Shown here in pieces: positions 21,833 through 24,036 of a stretch of DNA of 64,000 bases. Positions within the stretch are counted from its first letter, which is position 1; each line of letters starts with the position of its first letter. The notes under the pieces are model-generated. The model ran no database searches, had not been told where the DNA came from, and saw nothing but the letters and a program-made list of their open reading frames with translations. This stretch comes from Paracidobacterium acidisoli (GTDB taxonomy: Bacteria > Acidobacteriota > Terriglobia > Terriglobales > Acidobacteriaceae): contig NZ_QVQT02000001.1 of assembly GCF_003428625.2 (NCBI RefSeq), forward strand, positions 434,001-498,000, read 5' to 3'. Position numbers and translations under genes: made by a program.

Positions 21833-22888
21833 TCAGGGAATAATAGCCGTCTTGATGTCATTCACTCCAACACCGGAGCGCTCCATCTGGCGGCGGAAGA
21901 CGCGGTCGAGGTCGGCGAGCGAGGCGCGGCCGGTGATGTACTCGCGGCAGCGGAAGCGGCCGCTGGTAACGAGCTCGAAGGCGCGGCGGGCCGCGGAGGG
22001 CGTGTGGTGGAAGCTGGCCTTGAGGGTGATGTCGTTATAGTGCAGGCGGTTGGTGTCGAACTCGACCTTGGTGCCCTCGGGACAGCCGCCGAAGAAGTTC
22101 ACGGTGCCGCCCTTGCGCGCCATATCGACCGCCCATTGCCAGACCTGCGGCGTAGCGACGGCTTCAATGGCCAGGTCGACGCCGCGTCCTTCCGGAGTGA
22201 GCGCCCGCACGGCGCCGATAGGGTCATCGGTCGAGGCCAGCGAGACCACCTGCCGCGCGCCGAAGGTTCTGGCGGCGGCGATCTGCTCGTCGCGTTTGAC
22301 GACGGCGATGACGTCGAGACCGGCCAGCTCGGCGGCGTGCATGAACATCAGGCCGATGGGGCCGGCGCCGATGACGACGGCGAGGTCGCCAGCGCGGGCA
22401 TCCGACTCTTCGAGGCCGCGCACGACACAGGCCAGAGGCTCGGTGAGGGCGGCGTATTCAAAGGGAACGTTTTCAGGGATGAGCAGCGTGTTCTTCGCCA
22501 CGATGCGCGCCGGAATGCGGAAGAACTCGGCATACGCGCCGTTGTTGAAGAGCAGGTCGTCGCAGAGGTTTTCCTGGCTGCGGCGGCAGTAATAGCACTG
22601 GCCGCAGGGTGCGGAGTTGAGCGCCACCACGCGGTCGCCGGGGCGAAAGGCGGTCACGCCTTCGCCGACCTCCTCAACGGTTCCGGCCATTTCATGGCCG
22701 AAGAGCGTCGGAGGGGTAAGCATGCGCGCGTGATAGCCGCGCCGGTAGACTTTGAGGTCGGTTCCGCAGGTGAGGGCCGCGTTGACCCGCACCACCATCT
22801 CGCCTGCGCCGGCCAGCGGCACGGGAACGCGCTCCACGCGCAGGTCCTCCCGTCCATATAAAACGGCGGCTGTCATTTCCGAGAGCAT
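21833..22888 (-). CDS. Zinc-dependent medium-chain dehydrogenase, hopanoid-operon copy 2
   Basis: This 351-residue MDR-family protein has the catalytic zinc site (CGTDLKVYRRGYH, GHEMAG) and the structural zinc lobe CGQCYYCRRSQENLC. Its NAD(P) Rossmann segment is VVIGAGPIGLMFMHAAELAG. It is most like sorbitol, threonine and other polyol dehydrogenases. It is a diverged paralogue of the adjacent upstream gene. Sitting between hpnG and hpnC, it is a candidate for oxidation or reduction of the hopanoid side chain. No such role is established. Confidence 0.85.
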   Translation of the reverse strand: MLSEMTAAVLYGREDLRVERVPVPLAGAGEMVVRVNAALTCGTDLKVYRRGYHARMLTPPTLFGHEMAGTVEEVGEGVTAFRPGDRVVALNSAPCGQCYYCRRSQENLCDDLLFNNGAYAEFFRIPARIVAKNTLLIPENVPFEYAALTEPLACVVRGLEESDARAGDLAVVIGAGPIGLMFMHAAELAGLDVIAVVKRDEQIAAARTFGARQVVSLASTDDPIGAVRALTPEGRGVDLAIEAVATPQVWQWAVDMARKGGTVNFFGGCPEGTKVEFDTNRLHYNDITLKASFHHTPSAARRAFELVTSGRFRCREYITGRASLADLDRVFRRQMERSGVGVNDIKTAIIP

Positions 22889-22926
22889 TCTCTCTCTATT
22901 TTCTCAGAATCTTCACATTCCGGCTT

Positions 22927-24036
22927 TTACTGCGGAAGGATGAAGATCTTCATGGACGCCGGGCCCGGGTTGGATGCCAGATGGATGGCCTCCACGGCCT
23001 CTTCCAGCGAAAAACGATGGGAGATGAGCCGGGTGAGGTCGAAGCTGTTGCGGTAACCGTCGAAGACGAGCTGCGCGCCCTCGTCCTGAATGTCGGCGGA
23101 GGAGCTGTAGGAGCCGAGCAGGGCCTTCTCGTCCACGCAGACGACGGCGGGATCGATGACGGCCTCGCCATGCTGAGTCTGGGCGAAGAGCACGACGCGG
23201 CCGCCGGGGCGTGCAGCGTCCATCGCGGTGCGGATAAGGGCGGAGCCTCCGACGGCGAGCAGCACGGCATCGGCACCGCGGCCTTCGCTCGCGGCGTGGG
23301 CGGCGACGACGACGTTTTCCTTTCCGGCGTCGATGGGATGGCTGAGTCCGTAGACGGAGGCGATGGCATGGCGCTCAGGATAAAGGTCGGAGGTGAGCAC
23401 CTTTGCTCCGGCGCGCGCGGCGAGCGAGGCGAGCAGCACGCCGATGGGCCCCTGGCCGATGACCAGTACCGTCTCGTCGGGCTGCAGGTTCAGGTTTTTC
23501 ACCGCCTTCAGGCAGGTGTTGACCGGCTCGACGAAGGCGGCCTGCTCGAAGGGCACGCCGTCGGGAATTTTAACCAGTGCGCGGCGGACGATCCAGTCCA
23601 TGGCCAGCACATATTCGGCGAAGCCGCCGCCGGAGGGCTCGAAGCCTGCGGTGCAGCCCACTTTTTTGTAGAGCTCGCACTGCGCGTAGGTCTTTTTGCT
23701 GCAGTAGTAGCAGCTGCCGCAGGGGCTGTGATGAAAGACCATGACGCGGTCGCCGACGGCGAAGCCTTCGACTCCGTCGCCGACGGCGGCGATGGTGCCG
23801 GCGATCTCATGGCCGAAGATGCGGGGCGCGGAGTGCGAGCCGGTGTGGATCTTTTTGAGGTCGGTGCCGCAGATGCCGCAGCAGTGCACGCGAATGAGCA
23901 CCTCGCCGGCACTCACGCGAGGGACGGGAACGGTCTCGACGCGCACGTCATTGACGCCACGATAGACGGCGGCGCGCATGGTATCGGGGATCACAATTGC
24001 CGGGGCTTCCGGAGCAGAGCTGAGGGTCGTCGCCAT
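22927..24036 (-). CDS. Zinc-dependent medium-chain dehydrogenase, hopanoid-operon copy 1
   Basis: This MDR-family protein of about 369 residues has catalytic zinc ligands in HCCGICGTDLKKIHTG and FGHEIAG. Its four-cysteine structural site is CGSCYYCSKKTYAQC, and the Rossmann motif is VIGQGPIGVLLASLAARAG. The nucleotide-binding turn and zinc sites are intact, so it should be active. ATG 24036 is preferred; a TTG at 24060 in the same frame would add eight residues. It lies downstream of hpnG and upstream of its paralogue. Confidence 0.85.
   Translation of the reverse strand: MATTLSSAPEAPAIVIPDTMRAAVYRGVNDVRVETVPVPRVSAGEVLIRVHCCGICGTDLKKIHTGSHSAPRIFGHEIAGTIAAVGDGVEGFAVGDRVMVFHHSPCGSCYYCSKKTYAQCELYKKVGCTAGFEPSGGGFAEYVLAMDWIVRRALVKIPDGVPFEQAAFVEPVNTCLKAVKNLNLQPDETVLVIGQGPIGVLLASLAARAGAKVLTSDLYPERHAIASVYGLSHPIDAGKENVVVAAHAASEGRGADAVLLAVGGSALIRTAMDAARPGGRVVLFAQTQHGEAVIDPAVVCVDEKALLGSYSSSADIQDEGAQLVFDGYRNSFDLTRLISHRFSLEEAVEAIHLASNPGPASMKIFILPQ

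What the first reader, a model, noticed from the sequence alone, without database searches (positions are those of the whole stretch)
21833..24036. Tandem zinc dehydrogenases as candidate ribosylhopane reductases
In the hopanoid operon HpnG yields (phospho)ribosylhopane, whose ring-opened aldehyde must be reduced to make bacteriohopanetetrol; the responsible enzyme is not firmly assigned. Two intact MDR-type polyol-dehydrogenase-like genes lie exactly between hpnG and hpnC. They are related but diverged, so they may carry out two steps or opposite directions.
Basis: inference. Interest (0 to 1): 0.7.

Follow-up and report, generated by a model that had tools for sequence, protein, structure and literature searches.

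The report
Paired dehydrogenases for hopanoid side chains
Two neighbouring zinc dehydrogenase genes in a soil bacterium's hopanoid gene cluster are conserved as a pair across two bacterial phyla and are good, untested candidates for the missing enzyme that finishes the tail of the lipid bacteriohopanetetrol.

Summary
In detail: two intact zinc MDR genes (MDR1 22927-24036, MDR2 21833-22888, minus strand, 34% identical) lie between hpnG and hpnC, with gaps of 30-43 bases. The linkage is not new: a 2017 paper describes a gene after hpnA-hpnG (ug1) and a zinc alcohol dehydrogenase before hpnCDE (ug2), function unknown. New here: (1) MDR2 directly follows MDR1 in 70 of the 80 best related loci. (2) MDR1 tracks HpnH, the first side-chain enzyme, in Acidobacteriota (16 of 17 MDR1 genomes; 29 of 119 overall) and Armatimonadota (14 of 17; 31 of 151), often unlinked. 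(3) In Acidobacteriota, 0 of 13 genomes with HpnC but no HpnH have MDR1, against 13 of 17 with both; Armatimonadota cannot repeat that test and lean the other way (3 of 3). (4) MDR1 keeps the acidic NAD-type residue (110 of 110 copies); MDR2 lacks it (103 of 106), usually with basic neighbours (NADP-type). Best reading: a side-chain module with at least one member reducing ribosylhopane to bacteriohopanetetrol. Against: 12 of 13 MDR1-less HpnH genomes have an HpnG-like gene, and two MAGs have the pair without SHC or HpnH. No biochemistry was done.

The parts
22927..24036 (-). MDR1 (369 aa): zinc-dependent medium-chain dehydrogenase, predicted NAD(H)-type, directly after hpnG; matches the position of 'ug1' of the 2017 paper
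   Evidence: structure model mean pLDDT 93.6
21833..22888 (-). MDR2 (351 aa): zinc-dependent medium-chain dehydrogenase, predicted NADP(H)-type, directly before hpnC; matches the position and description of 'ug2' of the 2017 paper
   Evidence: structure model mean pLDDT 92.7
24080..24754 (-). hpnG-like nucleosidase/phosphorylase (removes adenine from adenosylhopane, by family)
   Evidence: TIGR03468 best NCBIfam hit at 84 bits, below the curated cut-off of 187
24751..25752 (-). hpnA (SDR, 'hopanoid-associated sugar epimerase')
   Evidence: TIGR03466 498 bits, over cut-off
20837..21802 (-). hpnC (squalene synthesis)
   Evidence: TIGR03464 356 bits, over cut-off
19783..20769 (-). hpnD-like (squalene synthesis)
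   Evidence: TIGR03465 best hit, 244 bits against a cut-off of 279
18371..19777 (-). hpnE (start taken at the internal ATG; the open frame begins at 19945)
   Evidence: TIGR03467 472 bits, over cut-off
13234..14712 (+). hpnJ radical SAM enzyme (BHT cyclitol ether branch), opposite strand
   Evidence: TIGR03471 770 bits, over cut-off

Best explanation
MDR1 and MDR2 are a two-enzyme module of the C35 hopanoid side-chain pathway. HpnH makes adenosylhopane and HpnG removes adenine, leaving ribosylhopane, a hemiacetal that opens to an aldehyde (established or proposed by others). At least one of the two zinc enzymes binds the opened ribose tail and reduces C-35 from aldehyde to alcohol, giving bacteriohopanetetrol. 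MDR2, with NADP-type residues, is my first candidate for this biosynthetic reduction; MDR1, with an NAD-type aspartate and the tightest link to hpnG in genomes where the pair is split, carries out a second redox step on the same tail or the same step with the other cofactor pool. Shown: gene order, conservation of the pair, co-occurrence with HpnH, intact zinc sites, cofactor-type residues. Inferred: substrate, direction and division of labour.
For: MDR1 directly follows an HpnG gene in 57 of the 80 kept loci and MDR2 directly follows MDR1 in 70 of 80; 46 of 80 are hpnG-MDR1-MDR2-hpnC. In 119 Acidobacteriota, MDR1 (E<=1e-70) is in 17 and HpnH in 29; 16 of the 17 have HpnH and the 17th (G107) has SHC, HpnA and an HpnD-like gene beside the pair (Fisher p 3.8e-11; about 1e-3 when families are counted instead of genomes, 4 of 11 HpnH families against 0 of the others, assuming 54 families). 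In 151 Armatimonadota, MDR1 (E<=1e-90) is in 17 and HpnH in 31; 14 of the 17 have HpnH (p 6.3e-9), although the HpnH locus is elsewhere in the genome. It is not tied to squalene synthesis as such in Acidobacteriota: MDR1 in 13 of 17 genomes with HpnC and HpnH, and neither MDR1 nor MDR2 in 13 genomes with HpnC but no HpnH hit (p 2.2e-5; lists re-checked). In Armatimonadota HpnG was seen at the HpnH locus in 11 of 12 MDR1-positive and 2 of 10 MDR1-negative genomes looked at. Zinc ligands and four structural cysteines are kept almost without exception. Cofactor-type residues split cleanly: acidic at the end of the second Rossmann strand in 110 of 110 MDR1 (109 Asp, 1 Glu), acidic in only 3 of 106 MDR2, with Lys/Arg next to it in 100 of 106. 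No enzyme was assigned to this step in the papers I could search.
Against: 12 of 13 HpnH-positive Acidobacteriota without MDR1 have an HpnG-like hit (8 of them within about 2 kb of HpnH), so those lineages use another enzyme or make no BHT. 17 of 31 HpnH-positive Armatimonadota lack MDR1. Two Vicinamibacteria MAGs (L141, L147; completeness not told) have the pair but no HpnH or SHC hit, and G075 (99% complete) has a diverged pair (37% and 42%) and neither. In Armatimonadota all 3 genomes with HpnC but no HpnH hit do have MDR1, so the test against a squalene role is not repeated there; pooled over both phyla it weakens to p 0.019. MDR2 follows hpnC in the split genomes, not hpnG. Two enzymes are more than a single aldehyde reduction needs. 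Sequence gives no substrate; the best solved relatives are only about 30% identical and act on varied alcohols.
Confidence: 0.5

Rival explanations
1. The pair works as an oxidation-reduction couple on the finished tail rather than as the primary reductase: MDR1 oxidises a secondary alcohol of the tail (for example C-34) with NAD+, and MDR2 reduces it again with NADPH, changing stereochemistry or opening another substitution, while some unlinked enzyme makes BHT.
For: Clean NAD/NADP split between two enzymes kept side by side; sequence neighbours are secondary-alcohol and polyol dehydrogenases such as threonine, butanediol, sorbitol/ketose and xylitol dehydrogenases; many HpnG-bearing genomes lack the pair, as expected of an accessory step.
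Against: No product is known for it: the 2017 acidobacterial survey (passages seen) reports mostly tetrafunctionalised BHPs and the text I saw does not give tail stereochemistry. Three literature searches for stereoisomers or isomers with Acidobacteria gave no lead.
Confidence: 0.2
2. HpnA, the SDR next to hpnG, reduces ribosylhopane (suggested in the 2017 paper), and the MDRs do something else.
For: HpnA was seen beside HpnH in MDR1-negative loci of both phyla; the 2017 paper proposes it for this step.
Against: The same paper cites evidence that hpnA is not needed for BHT in Burkholderia cenocepacia and is absent from Rhodopseudomonas; a 2025 paper finds hpnA absent from 6 of 48 HpnH-bearing alphaproteobacterial genomes (passage). 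HpnA was also seen at HpnH loci where no HpnG was found.
Confidence: 0.12
3. The pair belongs to squalene or general isoprenoid metabolism, because MDR2 is fixed before hpnC-hpnD-hpnE.
For: MDR2-hpnC-D-E adjacency in the 6 split Acidobacteriota genomes (hpnE not seen in the fetched stretch of one, G097) and in 7 of 17 Armatimonadota MDR1 loci; 16 of 17 MDR1-positive Armatimonadota have HpnC, including all 3 without an HpnH hit. The 2017 paper places ug2 with squalene genes.
Against: 0 of 13 Acidobacteriota with HpnC but no HpnH hit have MDR1 or MDR2; the four f27 genomes have the pair with an HpnD-like gene but no HpnC over cut-off; the HpnC-D-E route is complete without an MDR (2017 paper).
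Confidence: 0.08
4. The pair is a general polyol or sugar dehydrogenase module that was co-opted by neighbourhood only.
For: The pair without SHC or HpnH in two MAGs and diverged pairs away from hopanoid genes in G075 and three f45 genomes.
Against: Co-occurrence with HpnH in two phyla even when unlinked. The f45 MDR2-like genes have Asp, not basic residues, at the cofactor site, so they differ in type.
Confidence: 0.1

Closest known systems
ug1 and ug2 of acidobacterial BHP gene clusters (Sinninghe Damste et al. 2017, PMC5462960; passages seen, figure 7 not held)
   Same: Position: ug1 follows hpnA-hpnG, ug2 precedes hpnC-hpnD-hpnE; ug2 is described as a zinc-binding alcohol dehydrogenase of about 350 residues. 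MDR1 and MDR2 are in just these places.
   Different: The paper gives ug1 no family in the text I saw, ties ug2 to the squalene genes, and proposes hpnA, not these genes, for ribosylhopane to BHT. It does not treat them as a pair, nor test co-occurrence outside Acidobacteria in the passages seen.
L-threonine 3-dehydrogenase / sorbitol-ketose reductase / butanediol dehydrogenase branch of zinc MDRs
   Same: Fold, catalytic and structural zinc residues.
   Different: All 21 (MDR1) and 23 (MDR2) NCBIfam hits are far below their curated cut-offs; best solved structures are about 30% identical.
Unassigned ribosylhopane-reducing activity of Methylobacterium organophilum (Bodlenner et al. 2015; not held, seen only as a reference and as cited in PMC12583986)
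   Same: It is the reaction proposed here.
   Different: The enzyme was not identified. Whether Methylobacterium has MDR1 or MDR2 was not tested. That the cell-free reaction used NADPH is recalled, from no call.

Membership tests
Zinc-dependent medium-chain dehydrogenase (MDR) superfamily | GroES-like ADH_N plus Rossmann ADH_zinc_N domains | tested here: met
   Both proteins over Pfam cut-offs for PF08240 and PF00107; models of mean pLDDT 93.6 and 92.7 match solved MDRs along the whole length
Zinc-dependent medium-chain dehydrogenase (MDR) superfamily | catalytic zinc ligands (Cys, His-Glu, Glu) and four structural-zinc cysteines (roles recalled) | tested here: met
   MDR1 42 of 42 at C56, H76, E77, E170, C106, C109, C112, C120; MDR2 32 of 34 at C41 (Asp in L214 and L217) and 34 of 34 at H65, E66, E150 and the four Cys
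Known NCBIfam MDR equivalogs (Tdh, IolM, GatD, Idonate DH, AdhP and others) | score over the curated cut-off | tested here: not met
   Best are IolM 151 of 450 bits for MDR1 and Tdh 162 of 458 for MDR2; none passes
Hopanoid C35 side-chain pathway gene | linkage to hpn genes in related genomes | tested here: met
   At least one hopanoid gene in 76 of 80 kept MDR1 loci; the four without are L141, L145, L147 and the 3.2-kb contig L169
Hopanoid C35 side-chain pathway gene | co-occurrence with HpnH | tested here: met
   16 of 17 against 29 of 119 and 14 of 17 against 31 of 151; exceptions listed in the full report
Ribosylhopane reductase | present wherever ribosylhopane must be reduced | tested here: not met
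   12 of 13 HpnH-positive MDR1-negative Acidobacteriota have an HpnG-like hit; a second, unrelated enzyme must exist if these make BHT
Ribosylhopane reductase | NAD(P)H-dependent reduction of ribosylhopane to BHT in vitro or loss of BHT in a mutant | not testable with these tools
   needs purified enzymes or mutants

The most novel reading that the evidence does not exclude
A dedicated redox couple on a lipid's polyol tail: MDR1 (NAD+-linked) oxidises and MDR2 (NADPH-linked) reduces the opened C5 tail of hopanoids, so that the module both makes bacteriohopanetetrol and sets or inverts a stereocentre; an ancient paralogous pair shared by Acidobacteriota and Armatimonadota, and a second solution to the ribosylhopane step beside the unknown one used by lineages without it.
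Probability: 0.15. Interest if true: 0.75.

Novelty: new member of a known kind. Interest (0 to 1): 0.55.

Why it matters
The enzyme that turns ribosylhopane into bacteriohopanetetrol, parent of the most used bacterial molecular fossils, is unassigned. A conserved two-gene candidate that follows HpnH across two phyla, with predicted opposite cofactors, gives named genes to express and delete. The lineages that have HpnG but not this pair show that at least one other solution must exist if they make BHT.

Tried and rejected
Rejected: reading MDR1 or MDR2 as a named MDR equivalog (no NCBIfam model over its cut-off). A pure squalene role was lowered, not excluded. Using G007 as proof of co-loss: this relative of the same family (estimated 100% complete) has SHC and HpnH but no hit for HpnG, MDR1, MDR2 or HpnC; since the whole hpnG-hpnE block is missing at once, one deletion or one assembly gap explains it, so it is not counted as evidence.

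Inconclusive: where f27 genomes keep their HpnG. Their operon runs ispH-hpnA-MDR1-MDR2-hpnD without it; the unlinked nucleosidases of two of them score alike with the MTA/SAH nucleosidase, futalosine hydrolase and HpnG models. TIGR03468 at E<=1e-8 also rings in 7 of 14 control genomes without being over cut-off, so an HpnG-like hit away from HpnH is not proof of HpnG. Replacement reductases beside HpnG in MDR1-negative loci: none seen as a pattern in the gene lists I read; one Gfo/Idh/MocA oxidoreductase in L295 only. Local absence of HpnG in MDR1-negative Armatimonadota is weak: of the 10 loci, G264, G163 and G234 are cut by contig ends and HpnH stands alone in G136; with those left out it is 2 of 6 against 11 of 12 (p 0.022) or 11 of 11 if G150 is left out too (p 0.006). 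HpnO (the aminotransferase that competes for ribosylhopane) was not searched.

Literature searches for an assigned enzyme, a stereoisomer link or Armatimonadetes hopanoids gave none; only open-licence PMC papers are held.
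Full report
WHAT IS THERE. Two complete genes on the minus strand, MDR1 (22927-24036, 369 aa) and MDR2 (21833-22888, 351 aa), lie between an hpnG-like gene and hpnC. Both are zinc medium-chain dehydrogenases by Pfam, 34% identical to each other. The run HemQ-like gene, hpnA, hpnG, MDR1, MDR2, hpnC, hpnD-like, hpnE is co-directional; hpnA and hpnG overlap by 4 bases and the gaps from hpnG to hpnC are 43, 38 and 30 bases. SHC and HpnH lie about 43-45 kb from MDR1 on the same contig, outside the window.

PRIOR WORK. The association is not new. Sinninghe Damste et al. 2017 (PMC5462960; [quoted passage not shown] 350 amino acids'. MDR1 and MDR2 have these places. The paper links ug2 to squalene synthesis and suggests hpnA for ribosylhopane to BHT. 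A 2025 paper (PMC12583986; passages seen) still says that the enzyme for ribosylhopane to BHT 'has not yet been established'. I found no paper that assigns it, in a library of open-licence papers only.

LINKAGE. In 17 of 119 Acidobacteriota genomes with an MDR1 ortholog (E<=1e-70, 48% identity or more), the next hopanoid gene upstream of MDR1 is hpnG in 12, hpnA in 4 (family f27, no hpnG in the operon), and in G064 the pair is unlinked. MDR2 directly follows MDR1 in 11 of 17; in the other 6 MDR1 stays with hpnG and MDR2 sits far away before hpnC-D. A scan of species genomes with the MDR1 alignment kept the best 80 of 552 confirmed relatives: hpnG directly upstream on the same strand in 57 of 80, MDR2 directly downstream in 70 of 80, hpnC after MDR2 in 60 and an hpnD-like gene in 4; the full order hpnG-MDR1-MDR2-hpnC in 46. 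At least one hopanoid gene is present in 76 of 80 loci; the four without are two Vicinamibacteria MAGs (L141, L147), one Armatimonadota MAG (L145) and a 3.2-kb contig (L169). A few loci repeat a genome of the first set (L192 and L209 have the contig lengths of G059 and G022), so the two sets are not independent.

CO-OCCURRENCE. HpnH (TIGR03470) is in 29 of the 119 Acidobacteriota. 16 of 17 MDR1 genomes have it; the 17th, G107, has SHC, HpnA and an HpnD-like gene beside the pair. Fisher p is 3.8e-11 by genome, and about 1e-3 by family (4 of 11 HpnH families, none of the others, taking 54 families). For MDR2 at E<=1e-60, 23 of 26 genomes have HpnH. Starting from L145 I sampled 151 Armatimonadota genomes: MDR1 at E<=1e-90 in 17 (two weaker hits at 1e-61 and 1e-66 not counted), HpnH in 31, both in 14, p 6.3e-9, or 8.4e-8 if the two weak hits count as MDR1. 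There the HpnH locus (SHC-HpnH-HpnA-IspH-like-HpnG) stands apart from the pair; the pair leads into hpnC-D-E in 7 of 17 loci and MDR2 lies within 1 kb of MDR1 in 16 of 17.

SQUALENE OR SIDE CHAIN? HpnC over cut-off is in 30 of 119 Acidobacteriota. MDR1 is in 13 of the 17 that also have HpnH and in 0 of the 13 that do not, nor is MDR2 (p 2.2e-5; lists re-checked). SHC was not searched in those 13. In Armatimonadota HpnC and HpnH nearly coincide (30 of 33 HpnC genomes have HpnH), and the 3 HpnC genomes without an HpnH hit (G122, G151, G224) all have MDR1; these may be incomplete or may point to a squalene role. Pooled over both phyla the contrast is p 0.019. At the HpnH locus of Armatimonadota, HpnG was seen in 11 of 12 MDR1-positive genomes fetched (of 14) and 2 of 10 MDR1-negative ones fetched (of 17); with loci cut by contig ends or with HpnH alone left out it is 2 of 6 on the negative side (p 0.006 to 0.022). 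HpnG elsewhere in those genomes was not searched.

COUNTER-EVIDENCE. 13 HpnH-positive Acidobacteriota lack MDR1; 12 of them have an HpnG-like hit, 8 within about 2 kb of HpnH. 17 of 31 HpnH-positive Armatimonadota lack MDR1. So this pair cannot be the only route. G119 (L141) and G121 (L147), MAGs of untold completeness, have the pair but no HpnH or SHC hit. G075 (99% complete) has a diverged pair (37% and 42% identity) and no HpnH or SHC. In the tree the MDR1-type and MDR2-type sequences fall into two groups (SH-aLRT 97 and 99) that join before other MDRs of the window's genome (support 90; quick tree of 113 rows, with long branches flagged); the diverged pairs of f45 and G075 fall together within each group. 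The pair is therefore older than its link to hpn genes or was unlinked in those lineages.

ENZYME ANATOMY. Catalytic zinc residues and four structural cysteines are kept: MDR1 42 of 42; MDR2 34 of 34 except the catalytic Cys41, 32 of 34. At the end of the second Rossmann strand, where an acidic residue favours NAD(H) and its loss with nearby basic residues favours NADP(H) (established knowledge of the family, recalled), MDR1 has Asp/Glu in 110 of 110 copies of 42% identity or more, while MDR2 has an acidic residue in 3 of 106 and Lys/Arg at the next position in 100 of 106; the 5 diverged MDR2-like sequences all have Asp. The alignment to an NAD-type alcohol dehydrogenase (4z6k) places Asp opposite V197 of MDR2. 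Models of mean pLDDT 93.6 and 92.7 match threonine, butanediol and sorbitol/ketose dehydrogenases at 30% identity or less among the rows shown.

MECHANISM, AND HOW SURE. Established or proposed by others: HpnH makes adenosylhopane and HpnG removes adenine to give ribosylhopane (PMC12583986). Inferred: the opened aldehyde is reduced at zinc by NAD(P)H. MDR2 is the first candidate because of its NADP-type site; MDR1 is the one that stays with hpnG when the pair is split, so it cannot be dismissed. The cofactor split suggests two different reactions or directions. I give 0.5 that at least one of the pair is the ribosylhopane reductase; that the pair serves the side chain in some way is more likely than that. 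No experiment was run.

Noticed in passing
L295:2237-3385 (-), Armatimonadota genome G127: A Gfo/Idh/MocA-family oxidoreductase lies between an IspH-like gene and HpnG in a genome that has HpnG but no MDR1 hit: a possible stand-in reductase, one case only.
   Followed up: partly
L214:10073-11119 and L217:10223-11269: MDR2 has Asp in place of the catalytic-zinc Cys41 in two MAGs, with the other zinc residues kept.
   Followed up: no
L141:2326-5493 (-): In a Vicinamibacteria MAG without SHC or HpnH hits, a large RND transporter gene with a LolA-like end lies on the other strand near the MDR pair; its best NCBIfam model is HpnN (128 bits, far below the cut-off of 752).
   Followed up: partly
G028:C63:40944-41885 (L106:7942-8946): HpnH is interrupted by an in-frame TAA in this genome.
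   Followed up: no
G007:C102 (L097): A close relative keeps IspH-SHC-HpnH-ug3 but has no hit for HpnG, MDR1, MDR2 or HpnC: one deletion or an assembly gap.
   Followed up: partly
L121:9695-10108, after HpnH in the window's genome: A 137-aa protein follows HpnH in the window's genome and in relatives (seen in 19 of the 80 loci) and has no Pfam or NCBIfam match; position fits 'ug3' of the 2017 paper.
   Followed up: no
window 25759-26610 (-): A HemQ-like (chlorite dismutase family) gene stands 6 bases before hpnA; it had no hit in the 60 fetched hopanoid or MDR loci compared, so it seems a local neighbour.
   Followed up: partly
window 5264-6451 (-) and 14743-15656 (+): A glycosyltransferase weakly like HpnB (144 bits, cut-off 379), and two small membrane-protein ORFs after hpnJ, the first with an EamA match.
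   Followed up: no
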